DNA from: a virus
Strand: one strand, 5' to 3'
Length of the DNA: 47,658 bases
Virus record (IMG/VR): IMGVR_UViG_3300030328_001074
Coordinates: 1 to 47,658 of that record
Below, one piece after another: positions 7,244-47,658 of this stretch (the first letter of the stretch is position 1; each line of letters starts with the position of its first letter). The position numbers were made by a program, and so were the translations under genes. The notes beneath the pieces are model-generated. The model was not told where the DNA came from and searched no databases. It saw nothing but the letters and a program-made list of their open reading frames with translations.

Positions 7244-7244
7244 C

Positions 7245-7850: not shown

Positions 7851-7853
7851 ATA

Positions 7854-8354: not shown

Positions 8355-8381
8355 CAGTATGAGAACTGTATAAAACTCGGT

Positions 8382-8418
8382 CAAACAATAACAATAACAA
8401 TAACAAAACACAAACAAA
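8382..8418 (+). promoter_or_regulatory. CAA-rich unstructured leader
   Basis: The leader directly before the 8419 start is made of repeated caataa units followed by caaa units, with almost no G or T and no Shine-Dalgarno site. It should be unstructured in RNA and may promote initiation of a highly expressed gene. No promoter box is evident upstream of it. Confidence 0.45.
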
Positions 8419-8919: not shown

Positions 8920-9072
8920 ATGAAAGCAACTGGCTTAGGTGATGCAGTAGAGTCTTTCACAAAAGCAACAGGTATCAAGAAAGCGGTAGATACTATTTCT
9001 ACCGCTGTTGGTACTGATTGTGGTTGTGGAAAGAGAAAAACATTATTAAACAAATATTTTCCTTTTAAGTAA
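8920..9072 (+). CDS. Small 50-residue protein with CGC motif
   Basis: This short gene starts at the base after the stop of the 8419 gene and ends in a one-base overlap (taatg) with the next start. It encodes 50 residues: a helix (LGDAVESFTKATGIKKAVDTI), a Cys-Gly-Cys pair at 34-36 in TDCGCGKRK, and the tail LLNKYFPFK. The A/T-rich spacing, coupled start and stop, and non-random sequence support a real gene despite its length. The two cysteines with following basic residues could bind metal or nucleic acid. Function unknown. Confidence 0.7.
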   Translation: MKATGLGDAVESFTKATGIKKAVDTISTAVGTDCGCGKRKTLLNKYFPFK

Positions 9073-9398
9073 TGGCTTTTAAAATGAGACCAGCTCCATT
9101 TGATTTAGATTGGACACCTGTTTATAGGGCTCCAATTGAAGATGGTGCGCTTGGTAAGGGTAATAAAAACGGTACTATTCTAGTATCAGATGAATTACAT
9201 CCAGATGATGAACAAAGCATTGTAGATCACGAGAAAGTTCATATAGAACAAATAAAACGCGGTGATTTAGATTATGATGACGAATGTGTTTATTGGAAAG
9301 GTAAGTGTTATAAAAGAGGTGAAATGGATGAAGGACATCCAGATTTGCCTTGGGAAAAAGAAGCGTATGATCGTACTGATCCATTTGAAGCGTTATAA
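9072..9398 (+). CDS. Small zinc metallopeptidase-like protein (HExxH)
   Basis: This 108-residue protein contains HEKVH at residues 53-57, the zinc-binding and catalytic core of zincin peptidases, preceded by the helix DDEQSIVD and followed by IEQIKRGDLDYDDE. Glu95 or Glu97 in LPWEKEAYDR could be the third ligand, as in gluzincins. Between them are two cysteines (ECVYWKGKC). The length is close to a minimal zincin domain. It overlaps the 50-residue gene by one base. A role in virion protein processing or host-wall entry would fit the location, but neither activity nor substrate is shown. No classical prohead protease was found in the window. Confidence 0.6.
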   Translation: MAFKMRPAPFDLDWTPVYRAPIEDGALGKGNKNGTILVSDELHPDDEQSIVDHEKVHIEQIKRGDLDYDDECVYWKGKCYKRGEMDEGHPDLPWEKEAYDRTDPFEAL

Positions 9399-9409
9399 AA
9401 AATAAAATT

Positions 9410-9685
9410 ATGGGATATAATCAAGGTGGTAATCCATTTTCAAGATTACCAAAAGGAAAAAAATTAGAAGAAATTAGAGAAAAACCTGGTAGTTCTAATG
9501 CTGGTAAATATCCAGATGTTAAATCATTTTGTGGTCCAGCCGGTGGAGCTGCAGAGGGAACTTATCCAGTCAATACAGTAGAAAGAGCTAAATCTGCTAT
9601 TAAATTAGCTCATAATGCACCAGACCCAGAAGGTATTAAATCTTGTGTGTATAGAAAATACCCGGAACTTAAAAAAGACAAATAA
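9410..9685 (+). CDS. Small protein with the tag-family N-terminus but no tag
   Basis: This 91-residue protein starts MGYNQGGNPFSR, nearly the same as the start of the 6734 protein, but then diverges (LPKGKKLEE) and has no SPLN. The rest forms a compact domain: VKSFCGPAGGAAEGTYPVNTVERAKSAIKLAHN, then GIKSCVYRKYPELKK, with two cysteines. The order of a glycine-rich turn, YPVN, a helix and a Cys-x-x-(basic) helix resembles small domains seen in other phages' structural regions. It is followed by another tag gene. Function unknown. Confidence 0.55.
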   Translation: MGYNQGGNPFSRLPKGKKLEEIREKPGSSNAGKYPDVKSFCGPAGGAAEGTYPVNTVERAKSAIKLAHNAPDPEGIKSCVYRKYPELKKDK

Positions 9686-9686
9686 A

Positions 9687-28979: not shown

Positions 28980-30353
28980 ATGGCTACTACTATAGAAATA
29001 TCATATTTTAACACTTTTTGGTTAAAGAGATTAAAGAACTACGTGCAGAATGGAGAAGGTAGTGGTGGACTAACTACTGGTTCTACAGTTACAGCGCCAG
29101 CTAGTAGAGCAGCGGGAACTGGATATATAGTTCCCCTTCAAGAAGAAGATTGGTATATCGAAGAATCTAGAATTAGAGGAGGATATAATAATACCACGGT
29201 AGATTTTGGAACTAAAGCATATTTAGTAGAAGAAGATGCTAGACAACAAAGATTTACAAATAGATTAATATATTCTGGTGTTTTAAATTCTAGAACTGGA
29301 ACTAATAATACTAATCAATTTCCAATTGGAGAAGATATAACAAGAAGTGTAGATCCTATTAGTGGTACTATTCAAAAACTATATTCTGAAGATACTAATT
29401 TATTAGTTTTCCAAGAAAGAAAAGTTAACAAAGTATTAATAGATAAAGATGCTATTTATACAGCTGAAGGACAAGACGTTAAAACAGTTAGTAATGTAGT
29501 AATGGGTGCGGTAACTCCTTATCAAGGTAATTGGGGTATAAGTACAAATCCAGGTTCATTCTCTGTTTATGGTTATCAAAAATACTTTGTAGACAAATAT
29601 AGATCTGCTGTATTAAGACTGTCTAGAGATGGTATAACAGAGATTTCTAACTATGGTATGATTGATTACTTTAGAGATGAGCTAGCAGTAGCTAGTGATA
29701 TTATAGGAGGATATGATATACATAACAAAGCTTATGTAGTTAGTTTAAACAATAAAACTATTTCTTTTGACGAGCAAATAAATGGTTGGACTAGTTTTTA
29801 TAGTTATATACCAGAATTAATGACGAGTTGTTTAGGTAAATACTATACTATAAAGTCTTCAAAAATATGGGAACATTATTCAAACACTAATTATAACAAT
29901 TTCTATGGAGTTAATTATGATTCCAGTGTAACATTTGTGTTTAATCCACAACCTACAAGAATGAAAACCTTTAAAACAATTAGTTATGAAGGTAGTAACG
30001 GATGGGAAGTTACAAGCATGGTTTCAGATACAACTGGGAAAGATCCTTTAGGAGCAACATGGATAAATAATTCTGATACAATTAGTAGAATTTATAGTTA
30101 TGATGAAGGTTTTTATACTGATCCAGCTACACAAATAGAGTATAGAGCTGGTTTTGATAGAAAACAAAACACTTATTTTGCTTCTATTAAAAATAATTCA
30201 GAAGCTAGAGCTGGTGAAGTAATATTTGGAGGAGCAAAAGAAACAGGAATTAAAGCATTTTATACAACAATCAAGCTTCAAACAGATGCAACCACAGATC
30301 CACAAGGACCTAAGGAATTGTTTTCTGTTGGAAGTCAATTTAATCTAAGATAA
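28980..30353 (+). CDS. Tail protein, likely partner of the large tail protein
   Basis: This 457-residue protein starts with ATTIEISYFNTFWLKRL and continues with segments such as LVFQERKVNKVLIDKDAIYT and YGYQKYFVDKYRSAVLRLSRDGITEIS, which repeat strand-turn-strand units like a propeller blade. The ending KELFSVGSQFNLR is characteristic of tail-tube or stabilisation proteins whose longer relatives carry this region at the C-terminus. It may be a split-off half of the previous protein's family. It precedes the acetyltransferase gene by four bases. No catalytic motif is seen. Confidence 0.55.
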   Translation: MATTIEISYFNTFWLKRLKNYVQNGEGSGGLTTGSTVTAPASRAAGTGYIVPLQEEDWYIEESRIRGGYNNTTVDFGTKAYLVEEDARQQRFTNRLIYSGVLNSRTGTNNTNQFPIGEDITRSVDPISGTIQKLYSEDTNLLVFQERKVNKVLIDKDAIYTAEGQDVKTVSNVVMGAVTPYQGNWGISTNPGSFSVYGYQKYFVDKYRSAVLRLSRDGITEISNYGMIDYFRDELAVASDIIGGYDIHNKAYVVSLNNKTISFDEQINGWTSFYSYIPELMTSCLGKYYTIKSSKIWEHYSNTNYNNFYGVNYDSSVTFVFNPQPTRMKTFKTISYEGSNGWEVTSMVSDTTGKDPLGATWINNSDTISRIYSYDEGFYTDPATQIEYRAGFDRKQNTYFASIKNNSEARAGEVIFGGAKETGIKAFYTTIKLQTDATTDPQGPKELFSVGSQFNLR

Positions 30354-30357
30354 TTAT

Positions 30358-30765
30358 ATGAAATTAACAGTAAGAACACTAACTGAAGATGATTATTCAT
30401 TGTTAGAAAGTTGGTGGAAAGGATGGGGTTGGCCCGTCGTAGGTAAAAATATATTACCTGATGAAGGAACAGGTGGGATAATGGTGGAAAACGAAAATAA
30501 ACCTTTAGCAGCTGGTTTTATATACTGGAGTAACTCTGGTTTATGCTGGTTTGATTGGGTTATTTCAGATCCAGAAGGTAACAAAAGAATAAGACCTTTA
30601 GCTGTAAAGTATTTAATACAAACAGCAGAACAAATGGTTAAAGATGCAGGTAAAAGCTGCATTATGTCAATTAGTAGAAGCACCAGTCTACTTAAAATAC
30701 ATAAAAAATTAGGGTGGCATGTTGACGAAAAGCCATCTTACGAAATGATTAAAAAAGTAAATTAA
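30358..30765 (+). CDS. GNAT-family N-acetyltransferase
   Basis: This 135-residue protein has the GNAT outline: an N-terminal strand-helix (LTVRTLTEDDYSLLESWWKGW), a strand pair (KPLAAGFIYW and LCWFDWVISDP), an acetyl-CoA-binding loop-like region before a helix (NKRIRPLAVKYLIQTAEQMVKDAGK), and the final strand and helix (IMSISRSTSLLKIHKKLGW). It would transfer an acetyl group from acetyl-CoA to an unknown amine. The QxxGxG-type motif is not textbook (GNKRIR), so activity is uncertain. Such GNAT genes often lie amid structural genes of marine phages; it might modify a virion protein or a host target. Confidence 0.72.
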   Translation: MKLTVRTLTEDDYSLLESWWKGWGWPVVGKNILPDEGTGGIMVENENKPLAAGFIYWSNSGLCWFDWVISDPEGNKRIRPLAVKYLIQTAEQMVKDAGKSCIMSISRSTSLLKIHKKLGWHVDEKPSYEMIKKVN

Positions 30766-30771
30766 AATAAT

Positions 30772-31491
30772 ATGGCAGCAGTAAGTGCAATAGTCGGTAC
30801 CGCGGTAGCAGTGGGTGGAGCAGCAATAGCAGATGGTAAAGCCCATAGAGCTATGCGTTCAGCTCGTGGTAGAAAACGTATGGCCTATAACTCTATGCAA
30901 CAGGCTATAGAGGATAGACAAGATATAACTAATCCTTATGCAGGGATAAGTGATCTATCTGATTTAGCTAGTGATTTATCAGGACAAATACAAAACCCTT
31001 TTGAGAATCTTCAAGTTTCAACAGCAGCAGCTGAAATGAAAGCTGAAGAAGCAGATATTAGCTTAGCTAATACTTTAGATTTTTTAGAACAAACCGGCGC
31101 TAGTGCTGGTGGTGCTACAGCTTTAGCTATGGCGGCTTTAAAAGGTAAAAAAGATGTTGCCGCTAGTATTCAAGAACAAGAAGCAAAGAATGCTGAATTA
31201 AAAGCAAGAGGCGAGCAACATGCTATTGATGCTAGAGTACGTGCTACTGAAAGACATCAGGATATATTAATAGAACAAGGAGAAAGAGAACAAGACGCTA
31301 CGGCTCAAGGAGAATTATTTCAATTCCAAGCTCAAGAAGCTAGAACTAATGCTGATATAAATATGTACTCTGCTCAATATCAAGGATTTGCTAATCAACA
31401 AAACAATGCTAGAGTAGCAGGTGCAAACGCTTGGAGTTCAGCCGCGAGCTCAGTTGGTAATATAGCTAGTAGTGTAATAAGCGCAGGCTAG
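30772..31491 (+). CDS. Internal virion protein-like
   Basis: This 239-residue protein has an Ala/Val/Gly-rich N-terminal hydrophobic segment (VSAIVGTAVAVGGAAIADG), then long Ala-, Gln- and Glu-rich helices (ASIQEQEAKNAELKARGEQHAIDARVRATERHQ; FQFQAQEARTNADIN) and an Ala/Ser-rich end (ANAWSSAASSVGNIASSVISAG). This composition and its place before a very large protein match T7 gp14-like internal proteins, which are ejected and help form a channel through the envelope. It is preceded by an A-rich leader. The match is by pattern, not by alignment. Confidence 0.6.
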   Translation: MAAVSAIVGTAVAVGGAAIADGKAHRAMRSARGRKRMAYNSMQQAIEDRQDITNPYAGISDLSDLASDLSGQIQNPFENLQVSTAAAEMKAEEADISLANTLDFLEQTGASAGGATALAMAALKGKKDVAASIQEQEAKNAELKARGEQHAIDARVRATERHQDILIEQGEREQDATAQGELFQFQAQEARTNADINMYSAQYQGFANQQNNARVAGANAWSSAASSVGNIASSVISAG

Positions 31492-31514: not shown

Positions 31515-33080
31515 ATGGCAGAAGATACTAAACAATTCGACATACAACCCTTAATGATACAGGGTTATGATTCTGAAGTAAACAGAAAATTAAACACAGC
31601 TGTTAGCAGAAAAACTACAGAAACAGATTTTGTTAATGGAATATCTATGGATTTTCAAAAATCTTTGTATTCTAACAGGGCAGATTATACAAATAAAGAT
31701 CCTAAACTATCTAGTTTAATTGTTAATAAGTTTAAAGAAGAAGCAGACGCAGATGATGGTATTATCTGGAAAGAAACCATGCTTAATAGTAATGCTCAAA
31801 ATTTAGGACAAGATACTATTAAAGCTTATAAACAAGATATTGCTAATTATTATAAAAGATTAGAAGGAATAGAAAAATTAGGAGGATATTTAACTGTGGG
31901 AATAGAACCATTGTTATCAGAAAATTTAACTGATTTTTTATCTAATATAAATCAATGGAACTTTAATGGAAATGATGAAGGTGAAGCTACAAAAACTATG
32001 TTTAGCGGTTTTGGATGGGCTAATGGTTTTGATTATACTAATGATGTAAAAGTATTTAAAGATTTTAGATATGAAAAAGACATTAACGATCAAGATGTAC
32101 CAATTTTTAATCAATCAGTTAACGTTGCTATAGATAGTGATATGTTTAAAAAATATTTACATTATAAACCATTTGTAATGGATGATTTTAAAATGGGTAA
32201 AAACATATCTCAAGATCCACAATCAGGAAGATGGTTTTATAGTATACAAAGCGAAGTAGATGGTAATCAAGCTGAAACTGGAGAAATTTTAGATTTGTTT
32301 GTAACTAAATCACAACCAGGTATGGATGTTGGTAGTGCAATGAGCGACGCGGGTATAGTTAAAGATGGTAGTATACAACCTCAATATTTCTTAGGAGGAA
32401 CTACAGCGAGTCCTGCAGATGAAGTAGACACGGCGTTAAGATTAGGAGTTGAAGAAGAAAGAGAAGATGGAAAGATATATAATAATGAATTAAAATTCAT
32501 AAACACTGATAAGGTTAATGGAAATCTTACTTATCAAAGTGAAGTTAGTAGTGAAGTTGAAGGTCTATTTGCTAATGGATCTGGTAATCCTGCTGTGCTT
32601 TATAACTATGCAATTAATAATTTAGGTATGTCTTTACCAGTTGGATTTTTTGAAGAAGCTACTGATTATGAAACTCAATATTATCATAACCTTAATCCAA
32701 TTCAAAAAGCTTCATTCCCAGGTAATAGATATAAATTTAACATGGCTGGTGGAAAACCTATTAGTCTTTTAAATGCTCAAAAAGCTTGGTTCAATCAATA
32801 TATACAAGAAAAAAATTTAGATACTAAGCTTAGACAAAATACCGCTGAAGGTGAACCTTCATTAGTTAAAGCTAAGTTAAGTAACTCACCAAAGGATTTA
32901 AAAATAATAGATTTTTTAAATAGAAACAATATGCCTTTACCATCTTTTTATTCTAATCATTTAGGTGTAACTAAATGGCAACCAGGTTTACCAGTATTTT
33001 ATCAAGAAATACCTAAAGGAGTTACTAATAATGTATTAAAAGACGATTTAGATAGATTACTTGCTGAATATGCTTCTTAA
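31515..33080 (+). CDS. Probable internal virion protein
   Basis: This 521-residue soluble protein is rich in Asn, Asp and Lys with no membrane segment and no signal peptide. It begins KQFDIQPLMIQGYDSEVNRKLNTAVSRK and has segments such as FKDFRYEKDINDQDVPIFNQSVN and a helical end (LLNAQKAWFNQYIQEKNLD; VTNNVLKDDLDRLLAEYAS). No motif is recognised. It sits between the gp14-like protein and the 2941-residue giant, so it may be one of a set of internal or ejected proteins. It could also be a tail-hub component. Confidence 0.5.
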   Translation: MAEDTKQFDIQPLMIQGYDSEVNRKLNTAVSRKTTETDFVNGISMDFQKSLYSNRADYTNKDPKLSSLIVNKFKEEADADDGIIWKETMLNSNAQNLGQDTIKAYKQDIANYYKRLEGIEKLGGYLTVGIEPLLSENLTDFLSNINQWNFNGNDEGEATKTMFSGFGWANGFDYTNDVKVFKDFRYEKDINDQDVPIFNQSVNVAIDSDMFKKYLHYKPFVMDDFKMGKNISQDPQSGRWFYSIQSEVDGNQAETGEILDLFVTKSQPGMDVGSAMSDAGIVKDGSIQPQYFLGGTTASPADEVDTALRLGVEEEREDGKIYNNELKFINTDKVNGNLTYQSEVSSEVEGLFANGSGNPAVLYNYAINNLGMSLPVGFFEEATDYETQYYHNLNPIQKASFPGNRYKFNMAGGKPISLLNAQKAWFNQYIQEKNLDTKLRQNTAEGEPSLVKAKLSNSPKDLKIIDFLNRNNMPLPSFYSNHLGVTKWQPGLPVFYQEIPKGVTNNVLKDDLDRLLAEYAS

Positions 33081-33090
33081 ATAAAATTTT

Positions 33091-36000
33091 ATGGAGAAAG
33101 AATTATTTCAATTAATAAATAACCTTAACACTACTGATGAAGATCGTAATTATTTTTTAAATGCGTTCAAAGAAGGAGAGAATTATGAAGAAGAGAAAAG
33201 AGAAAAATTTTATCTAGATTTAAAAGATATGGTTATTTCTCATCAAAATAAGATTGATTCTACATTTGAAGGAGCAGAAAGATTAAGACGAGGAGAGATA
33301 ACATCTAGATTTCAACCACAAGTTATTATGCCAGATGCAGATGACTATAAAGATTATGTGGTAGGTCAAGATGGAATAGAATGGGTTGATCCTACAGATC
33401 CTAGTAAAGGTAAAAAAAATACACGGTTAGGACAAAATCTAATATCAAGTGCTGATTTAGATGCGTTTCAGATAACAGAGCAAGGTATTTTACCAACTGA
33501 ATTGTTACCAGAAGTTACAGTAACAGGTGATCCTAATACTAAATACTCTATGATGTTAGAAGGATTTGGTAATATTAGAGGCGCTATTGATACACAGTAT
33601 AATAATAACCTAAGTAATAATCAATCGCCTGAAGATGCTTGGGATAATGCTTTAACAGATGTACTAGGTGATCAGTATGATAATACTTTAGGTTTTGATA
33701 ATCTTAATGAAGCATTGGAAAATCGTATATCAGATTTTGATCTTGAAGCTATTAAAAGAGGAGAAAAAAGTTATCTTGATTATTTTAATAAAGGAGTTGG
33801 TAAAAGTTATGATCAATTTAAAACCATGTATGATAGATTACGTGATAAAGACAATTGGTCATTAGATGAAAATGGTAAACCACAACACTCAGATCTTTCA
33901 AAAGATAAAATTGAAAAAATAGTAGAAAACAAAGAAGCTAGCCAAGCTGATTGGGATATTGACACCTATATAAATAACACGGCTCAAGGTTATAGTCTTA
34001 CTGATGTTAGAGAAGGAGAAGGTGAATCAGCATTAACACGTGAAGATTTTAATAACGAAGAGTTTCAAGCTTTTATTAAAGATTTAAAGAAACAATATCC
34101 AAATGCAGATATTAATGAAGATAAAATATTAGATGATTTATTTTCTTTAAATAAACAAAGACAAAAAACAGTTGCTTTTAATCAAAACTGGAAGAGTAGA
34201 GTACAAGTTGGAACTGTAAATAGTTTAAAAACTACTATTGGTCAAATAGTAGAGTTTCCTCAAATGGCTTATGCAATAGGTTTAACACCTATTAATCTAG
34301 TTTTAGATTTAGCAGGCATGGAAGAGATTGATTATAAAGATTTTGGAGGTGAGGATTATAATAATGTTCTTGATAGGTTGTATACTAATAAAGAAAATAG
34401 AGATCTTAAAATACAACAATGGAATGAAGCAAATCCAATTGGAGAAAGTGTGTGGGAAGAGTTTAAGAATGGTAATTTTTCTAATTTTTCAAAAGGAACT
34501 ATTATTGGATTAGCAGATAGTGCTGGTCCGACTTGGGCTATACTTGCTATGGGATTTTCAGGAGCAAGTATGAAAACTATAACCACCTATGGAACTCCAG
34601 TGTTCATGGCTGGTGAAATGCAGGAGCAAAGAGAAGCTAATCCTGATATGGCTATATGGGAACTTACGGCAAGAGCTTATTCTTCAGCATTGGCTGAAAC
34701 AGCTTTTTCTTCTATAGGTACTGCAAGGATTGGTAAAAGTTGGAGAGTATGGCTGGGAGATGATGCTGCAGAAGCTACAGTAAAAGTAGCAAGTAAAACT
34801 GCTAAAGATGGATTCATAATGCTTACTCCTAAACAAGCAGCATGGAGAGATGAATGGATTAAAATATATAAAGCAGCTTGGAAAAAATATCCTATTTTCG
34901 CAGGTGCTGGGGGTGAAGGTATTGAAGAAGTTATGACTCAAGTTACTCAAAATTTAATTTGGGGTAGACCTGCTTTTGAAGGTGTTGGTGATGCTTTTGT
35001 ATTAGGTATTGCTGGTGGTGGTTTTTATTCTACACCTACATCTTTAGGTAATGCTGTGAAGCTTCTTGATAAAGCCAATACAATAAACAAGGTTAATAAT
35101 GAATTAAAACTACATAGACCTGGAGTAAAAGAAGATGATCCTGAAGGGAATGAAGACAATGTAGGTACAATTAAGAATAGTTTAGTTACCGCATATGACC
35201 CAGATAATTCAGCAGATGTGAGTTCTAGTCTTTTAAATATATTAAATATAGATGGAGCATTAGAACTTATAGATGAAGCTGTAAATAACGCTTTATCCGA
35301 TGGTAGTATAACTGAAGAAAAAGCTACAGAAATAAAACTTAATGCTAGAACTATGGCGTCCGCTAATAACGCTATTAAAAACAGTGGACTAATCAGTGAT
35401 AAGCAGAAAATTAAAGCTGCTGAGTTAATAAGAAGAAAGAATGAACTAGCAACTCAAATAGATAAAATAGAAGACGATGGATTAGCCGCTCCTTTAAAAG
35501 AAGAATTAAAAGCTATAAATGAAGAACTATCTCAGATGGCTCAAGATGCACTTACTGCTAAGACTGAAAAATCTAAAAAAGTTACAGAGCAAATTGAAGG
35601 TGCTGAAGTAAGAGCAGATTTAAATACTGTAGAAAAAGTTAAGAAATATCTAACAGATGAGATAGCTGCTGGTAATATAACTCCAGATTTTGGAGAGGTT
35701 ACATTAGAAGATGGAAGTAAAAGACCACGAACTGAACAAGAATGGATAGAAGATCAATCTAATGAACGAGGATTTATAATACAAAATCCAACAACAGGAG
35801 AGCAAACAGTTGTAATAAACTCTGAAGTTGCTGCATCAGAAGGAGTAATGACTACTGATCTACATGAGACTGGTCATGCTATTTTATATAGAACTTTACT
35901 TAATGATCCTAAAGCAGCTAAGCAATTAGGAGCAGCAGCACTAAGATATTTAGCTGAAATAGACATTGATCAATTAGCAGATAGTGATTATGTAAGAAGA

Positions 36001-39000
36001 CTAAGACAATATAGAGATCAACCTGGTGATGTACAAGCTGAAGAGGCTATAACTTTATTATCTGAAGCTTTAGCTAATGGAGATATTGTATTAAATAAAG
36101 ATTTTATAAGTCAAATAAAAGCTTATTTACGTAGCGTATGGCAAAAGAGTGGTTTTGGAACTATTAAATTTGAAACCGATGAAGATGTTATTAATTTTAT
36201 TCAAGATTATAATAAAAGTTTTGCTGAAGGAAAATTAAACAAAGCTCAAATTAAATTAGCGAATGAAGGTGCTACTGTAGATATAACACTTAGTGGAGCA
36301 GTAGATGTGGTGACTGATACAGAGGTGAAAATTAAATCTTCTAAAGCTGATAGTGTAGTAGAAGAAGAAGTTGTTATTGAAGAAGATCCAGATCAACGAT
36401 TAATAAATGATGCTACTGTTGAAACTATACAAAATTTACCAGAAGGAGATGTTGTTCAAAAAGAAAAGCTAACTAAAAAGTTGTTAGATGATAACGCTGG
36501 TTTATTCTTAGGACCTAGAGATAAAGGTGGTATAGATTTTGATAGTACATTCCTTGGAAAGAAAAATAAAAATACAGGTAAACCTATTACAAGACAAGAA
36601 GTATTAAATGAAATAAGTAGTTTAATGCCTGGAATTATAAATGCATGGAATTCTGAAGGTAGTGCTAGTTTTGGTACATATGCTACCACTTCGTTAAATA
36701 AAAAATTACCAGGAATACGAGAATCTTTAATAGGGGCTAAAGAGGCGAAGCAAAGAGCTGAATCTGAATTAACAGACGATGTAGCAGTAACTGAGCAAAA
36801 AGACTTTGATGTTAAAGATACAGGTAAAAAAGCTAGAAAGAAAAGATATGTAAGTAGTTTACCATCTATGAAGAGAATAAAACCTTCAACAACTACTACT
36901 TTAAAAGGAGGCGTTGATGCTAAAGGTAAAACAACTGGGCTAGCAAAAGAAATAATACAAGCCACTAGTTCTAATAAAGGCGATGTGGAATCTGTAGTTC
37001 AAGATATAGTAGAACAAACTAAGAGTAAAGAAAAAAGAAAGTTAATTAAAGAAGATATAGGTACTACTAAAAGTCCTAAGTATAAAAACTTTGTTGATAA
37101 AATAATTAATGATAAACTATTAGAAGCTATACCATCTGCTACTATTAAAAGAAGACTACGTAATGTTCCTGGTTTAAAGATAACTCAAACAGGTACTGTT
37201 AAAACTAAAAGAGTAAATCCTAGAACAGGTAAAGTAACTTACTTTGATAAAGGTGTTTATAAAATAGAAAGTGATCTTGATTCTCCAGGAGTAAGAGATT
37301 CTTTAAGAGAATATTTTACTGGAAATGATCCTAAAGTTGATTATGAAAAACGACAACAATCTTTAGTTAGTTTATTAGTAGAAGGAATGGCGGTGGAAGC
37401 TATCCAAGAATTAAAGAATGATAAAGCTTTTATGGATAAACTTCAAGATACATTAGATCTTAGAGGTATAGATAAAAGTGCTACAGATTACATGGACGAG
37501 TTAACTGCTGGTCTAGACAAAAGAACTAAAGAGGATACATCTTTTGATGAAGTAACTATAAAATCTGCTAGGAAAAAAGCTAAAGCAAAAGACAAAGCAC
37601 AAAAAGGTAAAGAAAAATTTGATAATGAAGCTGATAATATATTAAAAACAGTTTTTCAAGATAGTTTTATAGAAGAATTAGATAAGCAAGAAGAACTACA
37701 AAGAGTTGCTGCTGAAGAAAGAAGATGGAGTACCATAACTAAAGATTATGTAGCTTTGCTTAAGGCGAAAGGCATAAAAATACCTTGGCTTAAAGAAGGC
37801 GAAATTCTAGATATGAGAAAACCTGAGCATAGAAAAGCAATGCACGATTGGGTTTTTGATAAACTAGCTGGGTTAGTTCCTGCTTCAATGATAGAACAAG
37901 GAGGTAATCTTATTGGTAAAGCTAGTTCTACAATAGATCCTATTACTGGAGAGAAAATTAGAGGTAGAGACAATGTGTTAGCATTTAAAGACACTACAGA
38001 GGCGAAAACAATAGCAGAATCTAAAGGTGTAGAATATGGTGATAAATTAAAACCTAGGTATTTTACAGATCCTAAAACAGGTAAAAGAAAATTATATAGT
38101 GTTGAAGAACAGATTAGATTAATGGAGGTTGCTAATAAACGCGCATCAATAACTTCTAGTGCAACTGTGGATGGGCAAGTTGTAGTTGGTAGGGTAGTGT
38201 CTAAAAGCTTTATGGAGAAATTTGACACGCCAGAAATGGAAAAACAAAATCAAGAAAAGCTATTAGGTTTAGAAATATTTGCTCTTAATATGGCTAGATT
38301 AGTTAAAGAAGATCCTATATCTGGTTTATTTATTATACAGTTTATGAGATCTACTTCTAAAGGACAAAGTCATTTTATAAGAAAAGTAGCTCCTATAGGT
38401 TTTATGGAAACGGATATAGACATGCTTCCTGATACACGGATTGTGAAGTATTTTGATAAAAAAAATAAAGAATGGGTTGAATATGTCCAAGTAAAATATG
38501 GGATAACAGAAGAACATACTTTACCAGCAACACAAGTAGCAAAAGCATTAACACTTAATATATTAAAAGGTGTAGAGGCAACTAAAAATGTTTTAGTACC
38601 TATAAAACAAAAATATATGCAAGGACCGGTAAGTAAACCGGGTAAAACAAAAGAATTAGTTAAAAATGGAAGTAAATTAGGTACAGATAATATATTGGAA
38701 TTAGCAGGTTATGCAGAGGCTACTCCGTCTGGTTGGGATTTATATAATCCTAATGATCATCCATTTGCTAGAATGTTTAATCCTAAAACTGCTATTATAG
38801 GTGGAGGAATTAATCCTGCAAAATTTATAGTACCAAACTTTAAAGAAGGTGTTAAATCTCCCACTATAGCGGAAAAATATAATGTAAATAGTAGTGGAAT
38901 GCCTCTTAATAAAAAGAGAAAAACTTCTATTAAACAAGCTAAAAGTAAAAACTCTAAAATAAACAACGCTGTTAATGATGGTATGACTATTAATGAACAG

Positions 39001-41916
39001 CTAGATAGATTGGATATAAATGATAGGGCTGCAAGAAAGGCGAATAGAGTAAATAAAAAACCAAAAGGTATTAGTGTATTTGATTTTGACGATACATTAG
39101 CTTATAGTAATTCTAAAGTTATAGTTACCATGCCTAATGGTGATGTAAGAAAAATTTCACCAGCTAAGTTTGCTCAATCAGCTTCAAATCTAGAAGCTAG
39201 AGGAGCTAAATTTGATTTTAAAGAATTTGATAAAGTTGTAGGTGGAAAACCAGGTCCATTAGTGGAGAAACTTAAAAAAGCTATTGGTAAATTTGGTAAT
39301 AAAGATGTATTTGTTTTAACTGCTAGACCTCAAGCATCAGCTAAATCTATTCAGTTATTCTTAAAAGGAATTGGTATTGATATTCCTTTAGAAAATATAA
39401 CAGGACTAGAGAATGGTACTCCAGAAGCAAAGGCGAATTGGATACTAGATAAAGCAGCTGTAGGATATAATGATTTCTATTTTGTTGATGATGCGTATAA
39501 AAACGTTAAAGCAGTACAACAAGTATTAGATCAAATCGATGTAAAAGGTAAGGTACAACAAGCTATAGCAGATAAAACTAAAAGATTAGATTCTCAGTTT
39601 AATATTATGTTAGAAGAAACTACTGGAGTAGAAGCTTTTAAAGAATTCTCTGCAGCTAGAGCTCAAACAATAGGTGCAAATAAAGGAAACTTTGAATTCT
39701 TTATTCCTCCTAGCGCAGAAGATTTTGTTGGATTATTATATAAAATGTTAGGTAAAGGAAAAATCGGTGATAGACACATGGCTTTCTTTAAGAAATATTT
39801 ATTAGATCCATTTAATACAGCTGAAAATGATTTAATCTCAGCTAAAATAGCTGCCGCAAATGATTTTAAAGAATTAAAGAAATTATTTCTTTCAGATATG
39901 TGGTCAAAAAAAGGTGGTAAATTAAATCATAAAACTGGTATAGGTGGATTTACTGTTGATCACGCAGTAAGAGTTTATATATGGACTGCTCAAGGAATGG
40001 AAATACCTGGATTATCAAAAAAAGATATAAAAGAATTAAATGATTTTGTATTTAAAAATTCTGAATTAAAATCTTTTGCTGATCAAATTATGGGTATTCA
40101 AAAAACTAAATTATATCCAAAACCAATGTTGAATTGGGTTGGTGGAACTATAGGTCATGATATAGAACAAAGTCTTAATAAAACTACACGATCAGAATTA
40201 TTAGAAGAATGGAATGATAATGTAGATATTATATTTTCAGAAAAAAATCTTAATAAAATTGAGGCTATTTATGGATCAAATTATAGAAAATCTTTAGAAG
40301 ATATAATACGAAGAATGAAAAGCGGTAGTAACCGTCCTGTTGGTGGTAACAAACATGTAAATAGATTATTAGATTGGTTAAATAACTCTGTTGGTGCAGT
40401 AATGTTTTTAAATACCAGATCAGGTTTACTACAGTTGATTTCTAATATTAACTTTATAAATTGGCATGATAATAATCCACTTAAAGCTGGTTTAGCTTTT
40501 GCTAATCAACCTCAATATTGGAAAGATGTAATGATGATATTAAATTCAGATTACTTAGTCAATAGAAGAAATGGATTAAGACTTAATGTTTCTGAATCTG
40601 AAATAGCTGAAGCATCTAAAAAAGGTGGTTTTAGAGGAGTAGTTGCTTTGTTACTTAATAAAGGATTTTTATTTACTAGAATAGCAGATAGTTTAGCTAT
40701 AGCAACAGGTGGTGCTACACTTTATAGAAATAGAGTTGATACTTATAGAAAAGACGGTATGACTAAGGCTGAAGCAGAAAAAAGAGCCTTTGAAGATTTT
40801 TATAAAATATCTGAAGAATCTCAACAATCAAGTAGAACAGATAGAATTAGTATGCAGCAAGCTAGTGGTATTGGTAGAGTAATATTAGCGTTTGCTAATA
40901 CACCAATGCAGTATGCTAGATTACAAAAGAAGGCGTTTTTAGATTTAAAAAATGGAAGAGGAGATTATAAAACCAATCTATCTAAGATAGCTTATTATGG
41001 AATTGTACAAAACTTTATATTTAATGCTCTTCAACAAGCTATATTTGCATTAGCATTTGGAGATGACGACGAAGATCAAGATAAAGAAAAAGAAGAAGCT
41101 GCTTTAAATGTAGCTAATGGTATGATGGATTCTATATTAAGAGGTTTAGGTTGGCAAGGTGCTGCTGTTTCAACAATTAAAAATGTTTTAAGAGAAACCA
41201 TTGCTCAACATGGTGCCAAATCTCCTAAATATGAAGAAGCTGTATGGGAGGTGTTTGATTTTTCTCCACCATTAGATTCTAAAGTAAGAAAAATGAGGCA
41301 AGCTTCTAGAAGTTTTAGTTGGAATAAAGATGAAATTAATCGTAGAGGTTTTCATATAGATAATCCAATGATGTTAGCTGTTGGGCAATTAGTATCTGCT
41401 TTTTCTAATATTCCTTTAGATAGGGCTATGAGAAAAATTATGAACATAAGACAAGCGGTAGATTCAGAAACTGAGCTATGGCAAACTATAGCTTTATTAA
41501 TGGGTTATTCAGGTTGGCAACTTGGTTTACCTTATTGGGGACTAAATACTACTATTGAAACAGAAGAAGCTGAGGATCAACTAATTAAAGATGAGTTTAA
41601 ATCTCGTCAACAAGAATTAAGAGATAAAGGATATAAAAAGATAATGAACCCGGAAGATTATGATCCTAAAGAAGTGGAAAAAATAACAAGTTATACAGGA
41701 GTGGAAATGTATTATCTTAAAACTCCTAAAACAACGAATAATAAAAAAATATCTAATGACCCTAAAGATCAAAAAAGATTTGATTCTATTAGAGGAGAAA
41801 ACAAAGCTGATCAAGTAAAAACTTTAACTGGTTTTGGTTTAAGTAAAAAAGAAATTAGAGATTTAAAATATGAAAAAGATAGAATAGAAAAAATTCTAGA
41901 CTTAATGGAAAATTAA
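33091..41916 (+). CDS. Giant polyvalent internal virion protein (2941 aa)
   Basis: This is the largest gene in the window and is probably ejected with the DNA. Residues 466-510 contain a hydrophobic Gly-rich segment that could insert in membrane. Residues 925-929 read HETGH, a zincin core, followed by acidic helices (EEAITLLSEAL at 984-994) that might supply the third ligand. Residues 1998-2002 read DFDDT, then VLTARP (2075-2080), Lys2114 and FVDDAYKN (2131-2138): the four motifs of a HAD phosphatase. Long Lys/Glu-rich linkers separate these. Near 2636-2655 there is a second hydrophobic stretch before an acidic run. Such many-domain phage giants are known as large polyvalent proteins. Substrates are unknown. 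Confidence 0.75.
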   Translation: MEKELFQLINNLNTTDEDRNYFLNAFKEGENYEEEKREKFYLDLKDMVISHQNKIDSTFEGAERLRRGEITSRFQPQVIMPDADDYKDYVVGQDGIEWVDPTDPSKGKKNTRLGQNLISSADLDAFQITEQGILPTELLPEVTVTGDPNTKYSMMLEGFGNIRGAIDTQYNNNLSNNQSPEDAWDNALTDVLGDQYDNTLGFDNLNEALENRISDFDLEAIKRGEKSYLDYFNKGVGKSYDQFKTMYDRLRDKDNWSLDENGKPQHSDLSKDKIEKIVENKEASQADWDIDTYINNTAQGYSLTDVREGEGESALTREDFNNEEFQAFIKDLKKQYPNADINEDKILDDLFSLNKQRQKTVAFNQNWKSRVQVGTVNSLKTTIGQIVEFPQMAYAIGLTPINLVLDLAGMEEIDYKDFGGEDYNNVLDRLYTNKENRDLKIQQWNEANPIGESVWEEFKNGNFSNFSKGTIIGLADSAGPTWAILAMGFSGASMKTITTYGTPVFMAGEMQEQREANPDMAIWELTARAYSSALAETAFSSIGTARIGKSWRVWLGDDAAEATVKVASKTAKDGFIMLTPKQAAWRDEWIKIYKAAWKKYPIFAGAGGEGIEEVMTQVTQNLIWGRPAFEGVGDAFVLGIAGGGFYSTPTSLGNAVKLLDKANTINKVNNELKLHRPGVKEDDPEGNEDNVGTIKNSLVTAYDPDNSADVSSSLLNILNIDGALELIDEAVNNALSDGSITEEKATEIKLNARTMASANNAIKNSGLISDKQKIKAAELIRRKNELATQIDKIEDDGLAAPLKEELKAINEELSQMAQDALTAKTEKSKKVTEQIEGAEVRADLNTVEKVKKYLTDEIAAGNITPDFGEVTLEDGSKRPRTEQEWIEDQSNERGFIIQNPTTGEQTVVINSEVAASEGVMTTDLHETGHAILYRTLLNDPKAAKQLGAAALRYLAEIDIDQLADSDYVRRLRQYRDQPGDVQAEEAITLLSEALANGDIVLNKDFISQIKAYLRSVWQKSGFGTIKFETDEDVINFIQDYNKSFAEGKLNKAQIKLANEGATVDITLSGAVDVVTDTEVKIKSSKADSVVEEEVVIEEDPDQRLINDATVETIQNLPEGDVVQKEKLTKKLLDDNAGLFLGPRDKGGIDFDSTFLGKKNKNTGKPITRQEVLNEISSLMPGIINAWNSEGSASFGTYATTSLNKKLPGIRESLIGAKEAKQRAESELTDDVAVTEQKDFDVKDTGKKARKKRYVSSLPSMKRIKPSTTTTLKGGVDAKGKTTGLAKEIIQATSSNKGDVESVVQDIVEQTKSKEKRKLIKEDIGTTKSPKYKNFVDKIINDKLLEAIPSATIKRRLRNVPGLKITQTGTVKTKRVNPRTGKVTYFDKGVYKIESDLDSPGVRDSLREYFTGNDPKVDYEKRQQSLVSLLVEGMAVEAIQELKNDKAFMDKLQDTLDLRGIDKSATDYMDELTAGLDKRTKEDTSFDEVTIKSARKKAKAKDKAQKGKEKFDNEADNILKTVFQDSFIEELDKQEELQRVAAEERRWSTITKDYVALLKAKGIKIPWLKEGEILDMRKPEHRKAMHDWVFDKLAGLVPASMIEQGGNLIGKASSTIDPITGEKIRGRDNVLAFKDTTEAKTIAESKGVEYGDKLKPRYFTDPKTGKRKLYSVEEQIRLMEVANKRASITSSATVDGQVVVGRVVSKSFMEKFDTPEMEKQNQEKLLGLEIFALNMARLVKEDPISGLFIIQFMRSTSKGQSHFIRKVAPIGFMETDIDMLPDTRIVKYFDKKNKEWVEYVQVKYGITEEHTLPATQVAKALTLNILKGVEATKNVLVPIKQKYMQGPVSKPGKTKELVKNGSKLGTDNILELAGYAEATPSGWDLYNPNDHPFARMFNPKTAIIGGGINPAKFIVPNFKEGVKSPTIAEKYNVNSSGMPLNKKRKTSIKQAKSKNSKINNAVNDGMTINEQLDRLDINDRAARKANRVNKKPKGISVFDFDDTLAYSNSKVIVTMPNGDVRKISPAKFAQSASNLEARGAKFDFKEFDKVVGGKPGPLVEKLKKAIGKFGNKDVFVLTARPQASAKSIQLFLKGIGIDIPLENITGLENGTPEAKANWILDKAAVGYNDFYFVDDAYKNVKAVQQVLDQIDVKGKVQQAIADKTKRLDSQFNIMLEETTGVEAFKEFSAARAQTIGANKGNFEFFIPPSAEDFVGLLYKMLGKGKIGDRHMAFFKKYLLDPFNTAENDLISAKIAAANDFKELKKLFLSDMWSKKGGKLNHKTGIGGFTVDHAVRVYIWTAQGMEIPGLSKKDIKELNDFVFKNSELKSFADQIMGIQKTKLYPKPMLNWVGGTIGHDIEQSLNKTTRSELLEEWNDNVDIIFSEKNLNKIEAIYGSNYRKSLEDIIRRMKSGSNRPVGGNKHVNRLLDWLNNSVGAVMFLNTRSGLLQLISNINFINWHDNNPLKAGLAFANQPQYWKDVMMILNSDYLVNRRNGLRLNVSESEIAEASKKGGFRGVVALLLNKGFLFTRIADSLAIATGGATLYRNRVDTYRKDGMTKAEAEKRAFEDFYKISEESQQSSRTDRISMQQASGIGRVILAFANTPMQYARLQKKAFLDLKNGRGDYKTNLSKIAYYGIVQNFIFNALQQAIFALAFGDDDEDQDKEKEEAALNVANGMMDSILRGLGWQGAAVSTIKNVLRETIAQHGAKSPKYEEAVWEVFDFSPPLDSKVRKMRQASRSFSWNKDEINRRGFHIDNPMMLAVGQLVSAFSNIPLDRAMRKIMNIRQAVDSETELWQTIALLMGYSGWQLGLPYWGLNTTIETEEAEDQLIKDEFKSRQQELRDKGYKKIMNPEDYDPKEVEKITSYTGVEMYYLKTPKTTNNKKISNDPKDQKRFDSIRGENKADQVKTLTGFGLSKKEIRDLKYEKDRIEKILDLMEN

Positions 41917-42196: not shown

Positions 42197-43423
42197 ATGA
42201 AACAAATTTTACTTGCTTTATGTGTGCTTATTACGTTTAATATAAGTGGACAAGAAAAAGAGAAAGGTAGATTTTTTAAATCTATCTATGATGAACTCTT
42301 TAAATATAGTACGATCTATGTAGCGGGTGATATGCAGAATCCTAAAGAAAACGCACCAGATTATTTTGTAAGACCTGGTGAAGATGGGGGATTATATAGT
42401 ATACCACAGGTTGTAGACGGAACTGTTTACCATGAATTTGATTATAGATATGGCATAGGTGTTAGAAAACTAGCTAGATATGATTATGAGGTTAAAGGTG
42501 CACAATACTATGATGGTACTGAAAATAATGTAGGTTTATCTGCTACTAATTCCCCAGTTAAAGGATTAGAGTATGTATTTCATTGGGAAAAAGAAAGAGA
42601 AAGAGATGAGCTCTATGATAATCATAGATACTTTTTAAAACATAGTGGTAAATATCACATGGTTAAATTAGAAAGTAGAAAACAAGGGAAAGTAAATTTT
42701 GATTATAAATCAGCAGAGATAAGAGCTAAATTACCTATTGGTAAAAAGTTTAGTATAAGTGCAGGCGCTATTTATAGAACACATGAAAGACCTTACGGAT
42801 ATAACCCAGTGGAAATCTGGTTAAATGAAACTACAGAGTATATAGTTGATGGTCAAGTATATGAATACCCAGCTAATCCATGGTATACTTTAGGTTTTTA
42901 TTATGGATATGATGATATTTATTATACATCTACAAGTTATGATCCTAACACAGGTCAAGAAGTAGAAACGTCTGATTGGTATTGGGTTAATCCTGAAGGC
43001 GAAATCGTTGCTTATAGCGATTTACAATTCCGTGATACAGTATTTGCGGATCTGATGAATCGTTATAATAATGAAATGTGGGAAGGTATAGATAACTTTG
43101 GTGTTGTATCTCCTGTGGTCGGTTTTGACTTTTACCATTACAAAAATAAATTCTGGCTTCATGCATATGGATCTTACTTATTACCATATCATAAATATGT
43201 GCATGGTGACGAAGACTTTAGTTATTTAAATAGAAATAACTGGGGTATGGGAGGATTAAGAGAAGATGCAGAGCATGAGCAGTGGGAAGATTACCAAACC
43301 GGATTAGTTTTTGGTTGGAAAATAAACAGAAGTATAGGGATTTTCTTTGAAGGCGAATATACTAAATTCTGGGATTCAAAAATATATAACAGTTCAGTTG
43401 GCCTGAACATAACATTAAGATAA
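42197..43423 (+). CDS. Outer-membrane beta-barrel-like exported protein
   Basis: This 408-residue protein has a signal peptide (MKQILLALCVLITFNISGQ, Bacteroidota style with Gln after the cleavage site). The mature part alternates aromatic and polar residues: KLPIGKKFSISAGAIYRTHE, WYTLGFYYGY, KFWLHAYGSYLLPYHKY. The end reads GLVFGWKINRSIGIFFEGEY then a turn and SSVGLNITLR, the look of the last hairpins of an outer-membrane barrel. The very last residue is Arg rather than an aromatic. Phage-encoded outer-membrane proteins are unusual. It may change receptors, block superinfection or aid release. It begins three bases after the previous stop and overlaps the next start by one base. Confidence 0.65.
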   Translation: MKQILLALCVLITFNISGQEKEKGRFFKSIYDELFKYSTIYVAGDMQNPKENAPDYFVRPGEDGGLYSIPQVVDGTVYHEFDYRYGIGVRKLARYDYEVKGAQYYDGTENNVGLSATNSPVKGLEYVFHWEKERERDELYDNHRYFLKHSGKYHMVKLESRKQGKVNFDYKSAEIRAKLPIGKKFSISAGAIYRTHERPYGYNPVEIWLNETTEYIVDGQVYEYPANPWYTLGFYYGYDDIYYTSTSYDPNTGQEVETSDWYWVNPEGEIVAYSDLQFRDTVFADLMNRYNNEMWEGIDNFGVVSPVVGFDFYHYKNKFWLHAYGSYLLPYHKYVHGDEDFSYLNRNNWGMGGLREDAEHEQWEDYQTGLVFGWKINRSIGIFFEGEYTKFWDSKIYNSSVGLNITLR

Positions 43424-44223
43424 TGAAAAACTGGAGTCCATTAAATCAAATAGTAGGAGTAAGCGGTCCTAGTACTAATAACACGTTGTTTACGGACAAA
43501 GAACCTAGATTTAAAGCTCCTGTTTTTAATCCTGCTTCTGAAGAAAGAAAAGCACAAATTAGAGAAGATTGGAAAAATTTTGGAACAAATTACATAGATC
43601 TTGATGATGATGGAAAAGCAGAACCATGGGAGTATGGATTTGAAGCAGCTAGTTGGTTACCTAGTATAGTTGCTGGTATTGGAGGTACAATGAGTACTGG
43701 AGTAGGAGGAGTGCCTGCAGCGGTAGCAACTAAAACAGGACTTAAACAAGGGGCTAAACAAATAATAAAAAACGTTCCTAAATGGTGGAATCAAGGAAAG
43801 TCTTTATTTAATAAACATTTTAGACCGTGGAGAACAGCTGATCGTTATGAAATAAATACTCGCTATATTCCAAGATCTCGGGAATTTAAAGTAGGACCTT
43901 TTAAATTTGGTGGCAGCGCTATTTTTCCACATCATTCACAAAGACTCCAGCGTTTTGATGATGTCTTTCCTGGTCTACAATCTTATAATCCAAATCTTAA
44001 ATATGGATTATGGACATTAGGTACTCAAGGTGCAGGGTGGACATTAGGTTCTACAGAAGATAGATCACAAGGTATAAATCCTTATGTTCAAGAAGAACAG
44101 CAAAGAGTTAGAGATTCACTGGGTAGTGAAAATTATTTGGAAAGAAACTGGAATGATTCTTATACTGATAAAGATTTAATTAGAAGCAATCAAATTTACT
44201 TTAACAACTTAATAAATAATTAA
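43423..44223 (+). CDS. SPLN-tag protein with EF-hand-like loop
   Basis: This 266-residue protein starts MKNWSPLNQ, so it carries a short form of the tag at residues 4-9. Residues 59-70 read DLDDDGKAEPWE, with Asp at positions 1, 3 and 5, Gly at 6 and Glu at 12 of the loop: a canonical EF-hand calcium-binding pattern. It is followed by a hydrophobic Gly-rich helix (ASWLPSIVAGIGGTM) and a basic region (KTGLKQGAKQIIKNVPKWW). The C-terminal half has no clear motif. It overlaps the outer-membrane protein gene by one base. Function unknown; calcium dependence would be testable. Confidence 0.6.
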   Translation: MKNWSPLNQIVGVSGPSTNNTLFTDKEPRFKAPVFNPASEERKAQIREDWKNFGTNYIDLDDDGKAEPWEYGFEAASWLPSIVAGIGGTMSTGVGGVPAAVATKTGLKQGAKQIIKNVPKWWNQGKSLFNKHFRPWRTADRYEINTRYIPRSREFKVGPFKFGGSAIFPHHSQRLQRFDDVFPGLQSYNPNLKYGLWTLGTQGAGWTLGSTEDRSQGINPYVQEEQQRVRDSLGSENYLERNWNDSYTDKDLIRSNQIYFNNLINN

Positions 44224-45549: not shown

Positions 45550-46041
45550 ATGAAAAACTCAAGAAAATCAAGTCCTTTAAATCAAGAAAGATCAGCATGG
45601 TATTCACCACGAGAACAATTACAAATGTCAGAAGCAGATAGACAACAAGCCTATAGCGATAATGCAAGATTATTAGGTGAGTCTATGTTTTTTACTCCAA
45701 TGTTTGGTGGGATGGCGAGTATGGGAGCAAATGCTGTGAAAAATATGTTTCGAGTAGCGCGTGGTAAAAATATTGCAAAACCAGCAACAGGAATGGGATA
45801 TGGAAAGTATACACAACATGTAGATGATTTATATAACAATCCTTCACATCCATTAAATCCTTTAGCTACGCCTTTAAATCCAAACTTTACTCCAGTAAAT
45901 CCCCGTCCTTTAGAAACAATAATGTGGGAAGGTGGAAGGCAAATGGTTAAACCTGGTAGTCCAAAACCATATTCCTCGACAAATCCACTTTGGCCGCAAG
46001 CGGTAGACGAAGCTGTTTATCCAAGAAATTGGAGGATGTAA
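45550..46041 (+). CDS. SPLN-tag protein
   Basis: This 163-residue protein begins MKNSRKSSPLNQ, with the full tag at residues 4-12. It continues with a helical segment (SPREQLQMSEADRQQAYSDNARLLGESM), a hydrophobic Gly/Met-rich part (FFTPMFGGMASMGANAVKNMF) and a Pro/Asn-rich tail with repeated PLNP-like turns (HPLNPLATPLNPNFTPVNP). It overlaps the next start by one base. The hydrophobic part could contact membrane. Function unknown; the tag links it to the 6734-11330 block. Confidence 0.6.
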   Translation: MKNSRKSSPLNQERSAWYSPREQLQMSEADRQQAYSDNARLLGESMFFTPMFGGMASMGANAVKNMFRVARGKNIAKPATGMGYGKYTQHVDDLYNNPSHPLNPLATPLNPNFTPVNPRPLETIMWEGGRQMVKPGSPKPYSSTNPLWPQAVDEAVYPRNWRM

Positions 46042-47124: not shown

Positions 47125-47658
47125 TTACCCATCACAACTTAAACATGATTCGTCCATAGCTTGTGCAGCTATATCTCCTCGTAATACAGATTCTGTTCTC
47201 ATATAATACAAAGTTTTAATTCCTTTTTTCCATGCATCTAAATGTACTTTATTAATCCATTTAGGTGTTGCTTCAGCTGGAAAAGCTAAATTTAAACTTA
47301 CACTTTGATCTATATATTGTTGACGTATTCCTGCTTGTCTAACTAATTCTAATTGATTAAGCTCTTTAAATGTTTTAAATACTTCTTTAACAGTCACATC
47401 GTGATCTCCCATTAAAACATCTTCTAACTCTTTTATTCCTTGTACCGATCCACCATCTTCTAAAATTTTATCCCATATTTCTTTAGTATTAAGCTCGTTG
47501 TCTTCTAATACTTGTTCTAATGTAGGATTCTTTCTAATGAAAGTTCCTTTAGCTGATTGATCTGTAAATACATTTGCTGCCCAAGGTTCTATTCCTGGAG
47601 AGACGTTTCCGCTAAGCTTTGAATTACTAACAGTGGGAGCAATAGCACGAAGATGAGT
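47125..47658 (-). CDS. nrdA: Class I ribonucleotide reductase large subunit, partial
   Basis: This is the C-terminal 177 codons plus stop of a reductase that makes deoxynucleotides for phage DNA; the gene continues beyond the right edge. Read from the edge it begins THLRAIAPTVSNSKLSGN, then SPGIEPWAANVFTDQSAKG and TFIRKNP, all standard NrdA sequence, and later QSVSLNLAFPAEATPKWINK and TLYYMRTES. The last residues are ESCLSCDG, a Cys pair of the type that passes electrons from thioredoxin or glutaredoxin to the active site. It converges on the late operon. Confidence 0.93.
   Translation of the reverse strand, partial: THLRAIAPTVSNSKLSGNVSPGIEPWAANVFTDQSAKGTFIRKNPTLEQVLEDNELNTKEIWDKILEDGGSVQGIKELEDVLMGDHDVTVKEVFKTFKELNQLELVRQAGIRQQYIDQSVSLNLAFPAEATPKWINKVHLDAWKKGIKTLYYMRTESVLRGDIAAQAMDESCLSCDG

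What the first reader, a model, noticed from the sequence alone, without database searches (positions are those of the whole stretch)
33091..41916. 2941-residue giant with zincin and HAD motifs
One protein carries HETGH at residues 925-929, a HAD phosphatase set (DFDDT 1998-2002, VLTARP 2075-2080, Lys2114, FVDDAYKN 2131-2138) and two hydrophobic segments. Large polyvalent phage proteins with many effector domains are known, but this combination deserves detail. The peptidase could cut itself or host proteins, and the HAD domain could act on nucleotides or RNA ends.
Basis: partly seen in the sequence, partly recalled or inferred. Interest (0 to 1): 0.78.

Follow-up and report, generated by a model that had tools for sequence, protein, structure and literature searches.

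The report
Phage-ejected giant protein carrying swappable enzymes
This 2,941-residue protein of an uncultured marine virus, probably one that infects Bacteroidota bacteria, looks like a giant cargo protein that the virus shoots into its host, carrying a protein-cutting domain and a phosphatase that in several related viruses has a polynucleotide-kinase-like enzyme inserted into it, which suggests it delivers a nucleic-acid end-healing tool at the moment of infection.

Summary
In detail: one 2,941-residue ORF at 33091-41916 carries HETGH and a complete HAD motif set at the stated residues. The motifs are real. In 100 aligned relatives of 11-27% identity, the only invariant columns around the zincin are H925, E926, H929 and a fourth residue, E985 (gluzincin pattern). 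The HAD region folds as a Rossmann core. At least 581 IMG/VR loci encode the C-terminal block. Synteny (crAss-type muzzle, small protein, mid protein, giant) and N-terminal homology to cultured flavophage 'structural proteins' make it the third, giant protein of a podoviral ejection module, like T7 gp16 or N4/DEV vRNAP. The C-terminal block matches 'polyvalent' phage proteins by fold. The new part is the enzyme slot. Of 142 distinct giants, 129 have HAD alone, 7 have a polynucleotide-kinase/zeta-like P-loop kinase inserted in the HAD cap hairpin, 4 have kinase alone and 2 neither. The tree forces at least six changes of the nested state. HAD and kinase each match PHROG 'polynucleotide kinase' families. 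Best reading: an ejected polyvalent protein with a zincin (self-processing or host-cutting) and a Pnkp-like 3'-phosphatase. Delivery, cleavage and substrate are inferred, not shown; few relatives encode an RNA ligase. New variant of a known kind.

The parts
33091..41916 (+). Giant ejection/polyvalent protein, 2941 aa
   Evidence: at least 581 IMG/VR loci encode its C-terminal block
33091..35700 (+). N-terminal module, residues 1-870: fast-evolving, homologous to the N-termini of giant 'structural proteins' of cultured flavophages
   Evidence: family HMM hits elemo giant 4.9e-38, phi38:1 gp101 3.4e-36, Gundel1_74 9.3e-34, phi13:2 giant 1.2e-22; shuffled sequences give no hit
35698..36270 (+). 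Zincin-like metallopeptidase domain, residues 870-1060
   Evidence: invariant H925, E926, H929, E985; 7 of 50 members match Pfam Peptidase_M78, best 6e-5; confident predicted fold
35863..35877 (+). HETGH, residues 925-929, zinc-binding helix
   Evidence: helix 922-937 in the model
36043..36045 (+). E985, probable third zinc ligand (gluzincin type)
   Evidence: invariant in 100 rows; in helix 979-996 of the model
38203..39042 (+). 'EH' domain, residues 1705-1984: alpha/beta domain with invariant E1808-H1809 (R..AP ... EEHxxPA); function unknown
   Evidence: no Pfam or PDB match; confidently folded in part
39043..39585 (+). HAD phosphatase domain, residues 1985-2165
   Evidence: Rossmann core predicted; DUF2608 over cut-off; phrog_415 polynucleotide kinase in 41 of 52 members
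39082..39096 (+). HAD motif I, DFDDT 1998-2002
39136..39147 (+). Turn of the HAD flap hairpin, residues 2016-2019: the point where relatives carry an inserted P-loop kinase (L048, L071, L074, L110, L137, L139, L163) or other inserts (L033, L078)
   Evidence: hairpin strands 2010-2013 and 2019-2022 in the model
39313..39330 (+). HAD motif II, VLTARP 2075-2080
39430..39432 (+). HAD motif III lysine, K2114
39481..39504 (+). HAD motif IV, FVDDAYKN 2131-2138
39673..41598 (+). C-terminal helical block, residues 2195-2836, most conserved part; matches polyvalent phage proteins by fold
31515..33080 (+). 521-aa middle gene of the ejection-type module (position of T7 gp15 / DEV gp72)
   Evidence: constant gene order; no sequence match to the cultured counterparts
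30772..31491 (+). 239-aa small gene of the module (position of T7 gp14 / DEV gp73)
   Evidence: family HMM hits phi38:1 gp99 2.3e-10 and elemo_88 1e-5
30358..30765 (+). 135-aa gene before the module (phrog_17252; acetyltransferase-like by eye only)
   Evidence: Pfam gives no acetyltransferase match
28980..30353 (+). Muzzle-type tail protein related to crassvirus muzzle
   Evidence: crAss_MUZ_C 6.2e-14, crAss_MUZ 6.3e-8, both over cut-off

Best explanation
The ORF encodes the third and largest protein of a podovirus-type ejection module in an uncultured marine phage, probably of Bacteroidota, with a crassvirus-like tail. It is packaged in the virion and enters the cell at or before DNA entry. 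Its fast-evolving N-terminus is the virion/ejection part shared with cultured flavophage giants. The middle zincin (HExxH...E985) most likely cuts the giant itself, freeing the C-terminal enzyme part, or cuts host proteins. The HAD domain before the C-terminal block is most likely a polynucleotide end phosphatase of the T4 Pnkp type, delivered early. It occupies a cassette slot that in relatives holds a PNK-like kinase nested in the HAD cap, kinase alone, or another enzyme. Shown: the domains, their conserved active-site residues, gene order, homology of the N-terminus to annotated virion proteins, cassette swapping. Inferred: packaging, ejection, cleavage and substrate.
For: Motifs exact and conserved. 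Zincin: Peptidase_M78 best 6e-5; model confident with HExxH and Glu helices. HAD: Rossmann strands with motifs I, II and IV in place; the highest-probability PDB fold hits include HADs (PSPH 0.89, Nir2 0.66, class C acid phosphatase 0.47); phrog_415 polynucleotide kinase in 41 of 52, best 3e-8, spanning the domain; DNA-3'-Pase model in 8 of 52, weak. Nested kinase: phrog_505 polynucleotide kinase 1e-12; best PDB matches 4gp7 and related chains (6e-4, deposited as metallophosphoesterase; known to me as the C. thermocellum Pnkp kinase domain) and T4 PNK (0.012); hhalign to T4 PseT kinase 92%, 5e-7, with its Asp aligned to T4 D35. All HAD motifs kept around the insert; nested state needs at least 6 changes on the tree. 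Module: muzzle, small, mid, giant; same order in Gundel, phi38:1, elemo and N4 gp52-51-50. DEV work assigns this trio to ejection, with the giant equivalent to T7 gp16 (PMC10925440). N-terminal HMM hits cultured structural giants; C-block fold matches polyvalent proteins.
Against: No proteomics exists for this virus; the 'structural protein' labels of the cultured counterparts are annotations, some 'based on similarity'. PDB fold searches gave no match below E = 0.5 for either fragment. The window's own HAD has no nested kinase, and its hhalign match to T4 PseT phosphatase covers motif I only (45%). The nested kinase also matches Zeta_toxin. The cap site accepts a non-kinase insert too (L033). 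Only 4 of 38 long relative records have an RNA ligase match, so full RNA repair is not generally supported. The cultured relatives lack the HAD.
Confidence: 0.6

Rival explanations
1. Same ejected polyvalent protein, but the HAD acts on small phosphorylated metabolites or nucleotide signals (blocking nucleotide-based defence or feeding nucleotide metabolism), and the nested kinase is a zeta-type nucleotide-sugar kinase.
For: The HAD also matches generic HAD models and DUF2608. The kinase matches Zeta_toxin, and a viral relative is named UDP-N-acetylglucosamine kinase in UniProt. RNA ligase is rare in relatives.
Against: PNK families match the kinase better than zeta, and a PNK-named family spans the HAD domain. 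In the model the HAD has no large cap, which usually goes with macromolecular substrates (own knowledge).
Confidence: 0.25
2. The giant is a structural or assembly protein that stays in the virion or procapsid; the zincin is a maturation protease and the HAD is vestigial or structural.
For: It lies in the virion gene block next to portal, capsid and tail genes, and zincins can process proteins in the head (PMC5512222).
Against: Catalytic residues of both enzymes are invariant in fast-evolving sequence. The HAD slot can hold a kinase or something else instead, unlike a structural part. The module matches ejection proteins.
Confidence: 0.12
3. The motifs are chance matches in a long protein without enzymatic domains.
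For: Single-sequence Pfam and PHROG scans of the whole protein found neither domain.
Against: Invariance in 100 relatives, profile matches and a predicted Rossmann fold.
Confidence: 0.01

Closest known systems
Polyvalent proteins of phages (Iyer et al. 2017, PMC5512222)
   Same: Very large multidomain virion-linked phage protein; zincin metallopeptidase as recurring processing domain; C-terminal block resembles theirs by fold.
   Different: A term search of the paper found no HAD or polynucleotide kinase domain; here a HAD with a nested PNK-like kinase is the swappable cassette.
N4/DEV virion RNA polymerase and its module (DEV gp73-gp72-gp71; PMC10925440)
   Same: Third and giant gene after a small and a middle gene; HExxH domain in the giant (N4).
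   Different: No RNA polymerase domain was found by Pfam; HAD in its place. Zincin homology to N4 not demonstrated.
phi-crAss001 cargo proteins (PMC10172136)
   Same: Crassvirus-type muzzle in the same gene block; cargo stored in capsid and tail and ejected.
   Different: The crAss001 cargo proteins are annotated as channel-forming or RNA-polymerase-associated; no zincin or phosphatase is mentioned in the text.
Tenacibaculum phage Gundel_1 gp74, Cellulophaga phi38:1 gp101, Flavobacterium elemo giant
   Same: Homologous N-terminus and gene order; Gundel also shares the zincin and part of the C-block.
   Different: No HAD; Gundel carries a weakly matching acetyltransferase domain instead.
T4 Pnkp (PseT), 5'-kinase / 3'-phosphatase
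   Same: PNK-like P-loop kinase and HAD in one polypeptide in seven relatives.
   Different: Kinase sits inside the HAD flap hairpin rather than in tandem; part of a virion giant, not a free enzyme; the window's copy has the HAD only.

Membership tests
Polyvalent phage proteins | Several disparate enzymatic domains in one polypeptide | tested here: met
   zincin and HAD, plus a nested kinase in relatives
Polyvalent phage proteins | Encoded among virion genes | tested here: met
Polyvalent phage proteins | Shared polyvalent-associated domains | tested here: inconclusive
   fold matches to LPD- and PolyVal-named proteins, but no Pfam LPD sequence match
Polyvalent phage proteins | Delivered into the host | not testable with these tools
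   needs infection experiments
Zincin metallopeptidases (gluzincin type) | HExxH plus downstream Glu ligand, conserved | tested here: met
   H925, E926, H929, E985 invariant
Zincin metallopeptidases (gluzincin type) | Zincin fold | tested here: inconclusive
   confident model with matching helices; M78 profile in 7 of 50; no PDB fold match
HAD superfamily phosphatases | DxDxT, T/S, K and DD motifs on a Rossmann core | tested here: met
Pnkp-type 3'-phosphatase | Sequence similarity to known PNK phosphatases | tested here: inconclusive
   phrog_415 in 41 of 52; T4 PseT match limited to motif I; DNA-3'-Pase weak
Pnkp-type 3'-phosphatase | Partner 5'-kinase in the same chain | tested here: not met
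   absent in the window protein; present in 7 of 142 relatives
Podoviral ejection module (T7 gp14-15-16, DEV gp73-72-71) | Small, middle, giant gene order in the virion block | tested here: met
Podoviral ejection module (T7 gp14-15-16, DEV gp73-72-71) | Sequence homology to T7, N4 or DEV ejection proteins | tested here: not met
   module HMMs matched flavophage loci but not N4; T7 and DEV not tested
Crassvirales | Crassvirus muzzle protein | tested here: met
Crassvirales | crAss capsid, portal and RNA polymerase gene set | not tested
   portal, capsid and terminase hit PHROG families named by function only

The most novel reading that the evidence does not exclude
A widespread marine phage clade injects, as part of its ejection apparatus, a polynucleotide end-healing cassette in which a 5'-kinase is nested in the cap of a 3'-phosphatase and can be gained, lost or replaced. 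The zincin frees it on entry, so that broken tRNA or DNA ends made by host defence are mended before any phage gene is expressed.
Probability: 0.25. Interest if true: 0.8.

Novelty: new variant of a known kind. Interest (0 to 1): 0.6.

Why it matters
It would show that ejection proteins of abundant uncultured marine phages are delivery vehicles for interchangeable enzymes that act before phage transcription, and that nucleic-acid end healing is one such payload. The kinase nested in the HAD cap is, as far as the searches here show, an undescribed arrangement and gives a direct biochemical test of the HAD's substrate.

Tried and rejected
Whole-protein Pfam and PHROG scans found neither domain; domain-by-domain family scans were needed. 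tblastn of the window protein against cultured phages found nothing; a relative and then Gundel bridged to the cultured giants. Profile searches of the PDB with HAD, zincin, C-block and EH domain gave no credible match. PDB fold search of the N-terminal/zincin fragment found nothing. Comparison with the N4 zincin aligned only HExxH. Genome contigs gave only 11 HAD hits, all in metagenome-assembled genomes; those inspected encode phage-type giants, so no cellular HAD relative was found. RNA ligase search: PF09414 in 4 of 38 records; PF09511 found nothing, but its control was silent too. A first relative search used HAD peptides and so was biased; it was repeated with the C-terminal block only. 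Membrane segments were rejected as evidence.

Full report
Observation. The window is itself a whole virus record of 47,658 bases. Whole-protein family scans recognise none of it, so relatives had to be gathered.

Relatives. A scan of IMG/VR with the protein found one 47%-identical relative. An alignment of the HAD and C-terminal stretch found 221 or more. Because that scan used HAD peptides, it was repeated with the C-terminal block only: at least 581 loci. The giants are mostly about 2,200-4,100 aa long. The N-terminus and the linkers are poorly conserved, the C-terminal 2000-2800 stretch strongly.

Zincin. In 100 aligned stretches (11-27% identical to the window) the only invariant columns are H925, E926, H929 and E985. 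Seven of 50 members match Peptidase_M78, best 6e-5. The model places HExxH in a confident helix and E985 in a second one. A PDB fold search of this fragment found nothing, so the fold assignment rests on motif, profile and model.

HAD. Strands and helices alternate as in a HAD core, with the motifs at strand ends. PDB fold E-values are all above 0.5, but the HAD hits (PSPH, Nir2, class C acid phosphatase) carry the highest probabilities among those listed. 41 of 52 HAD domains match phrog_415, named polynucleotide kinase (best 3e-8), along the whole domain; 8 of 52 weakly match the NCBIfam DNA 3'-phosphatase model.

Cassette slot. Among 142 distinct giants, 129 have the HAD alone, 7 have a P-loop kinase inserted in the HAD, 4 have the kinase in place of the HAD, and 2 have neither. 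The inserted kinase lies between the two strands of the flap hairpin after motif I, where HAD C1 caps are inserted (own knowledge; strands, sequences), and motifs I-IV are all kept around it. The kinase matches PHROG polynucleotide kinase at 1e-12, AAA_33 and Zeta_toxin in Pfam, and in the PDB 4gp7 and related chains (6e-4; Pnkp kinase domain of C. thermocellum, from own knowledge) ahead of T4 PNK and zeta toxin. hhalign against T4 PseT gives 92% and 5e-7, aligning its Asp with T4 D35. On a tree of the C-terminal block the nested state needs six changes, all forced by well-supported branches, so the pairing was gained or lost repeatedly. The same site also accepts a non-kinase insert in L033, and L124 has a second HExxH in the slot.

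Module and virion link. Muzzle, a short gene, a ~200-310-aa gene, a mid-sized gene and the giant recur in this order in relatives. The muzzle is related to that of crassviruses. The same order precedes the giants of Gundel_1, phi38:1 and elemo phages and of N4. An HMM of the family's N-termini hits the N-termini of the cultured giants at 1e-22 to 5e-38, with none among shuffled sequences. Gundel1_74 also shares the zincin and part of the C-block. In DEV the corresponding trio is proposed as ejection proteins equivalent to T7 gp14-15-16, and the giant as the injected RNA polymerase (PMC10925440). The C-terminal block resembles polyvalent phage proteins by fold; polyvalent proteins commonly carry zincins thought to process them in the head or after entry (PMC5512222).

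Mechanism. Shown: domains, invariant active sites, gene order, homology to annotated virion proteins, slot swapping. Inferred: packaging, ejection, zincin processing, and a 3'-end phosphatase activity of the HAD. Against a complete RNA-repair pathway, only 4 of 38 long relative records match an RNA ligase, so sealing would usually depend on the host or the target is something else.

Verdict. A real, conserved member of the ejected polyvalent class with a new payload; new variant of a known kind.

Noticed in passing
window 6734-11330, 43423-44223, 45550-46041; L108, L110, L121, L145, L154, L062, L056: Short motif SPL[NK] (often RKSSPLN or MSKKSPLK) recurs in small window ORFs: 11 against 0.56 in shuffles. 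In relatives it sits near the N-terminus of 27 of 3,005 ORFs against 3.35 expected, including giants, middle and small module proteins. Possible assembly or cargo-loading tag.
   Followed up: partly
window 38203-39042: EH domain with invariant E1808-H1809 (R..AP ... EEHxxPA) before the HAD; no Pfam or PDB match. Possibly another enzyme.
   Followed up: partly
window 3179-4970: Adjacent ORFs resembling GroEL and GroES by reading; phage-encoded chaperonin next to virion genes.
   Followed up: no
L072 5277-8708 and 8756-12136: The giant is split into two ORFs, the zincin half and the HAD/C-terminal half; natural gene split or assembly error.
   Followed up: no
L033 HAD insert; L102 after HAD: An unrelated domain of similar sequence sits in the HAD cap of L033 and directly after the HAD in L102.
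   Followed up: no
L083 13551-20999: Gundel1_74 contains a weak acetyltransferase match (residues 896-966), another candidate payload.
   Followed up: no
window 47125-47412 (-): Minus-strand ORF similar by eye to the C-terminal end of the L001 ORF 16981-18699, which reads like a ribonucleotide reductase; start of a convergent gene block cut by the window end.
   Followed up: no
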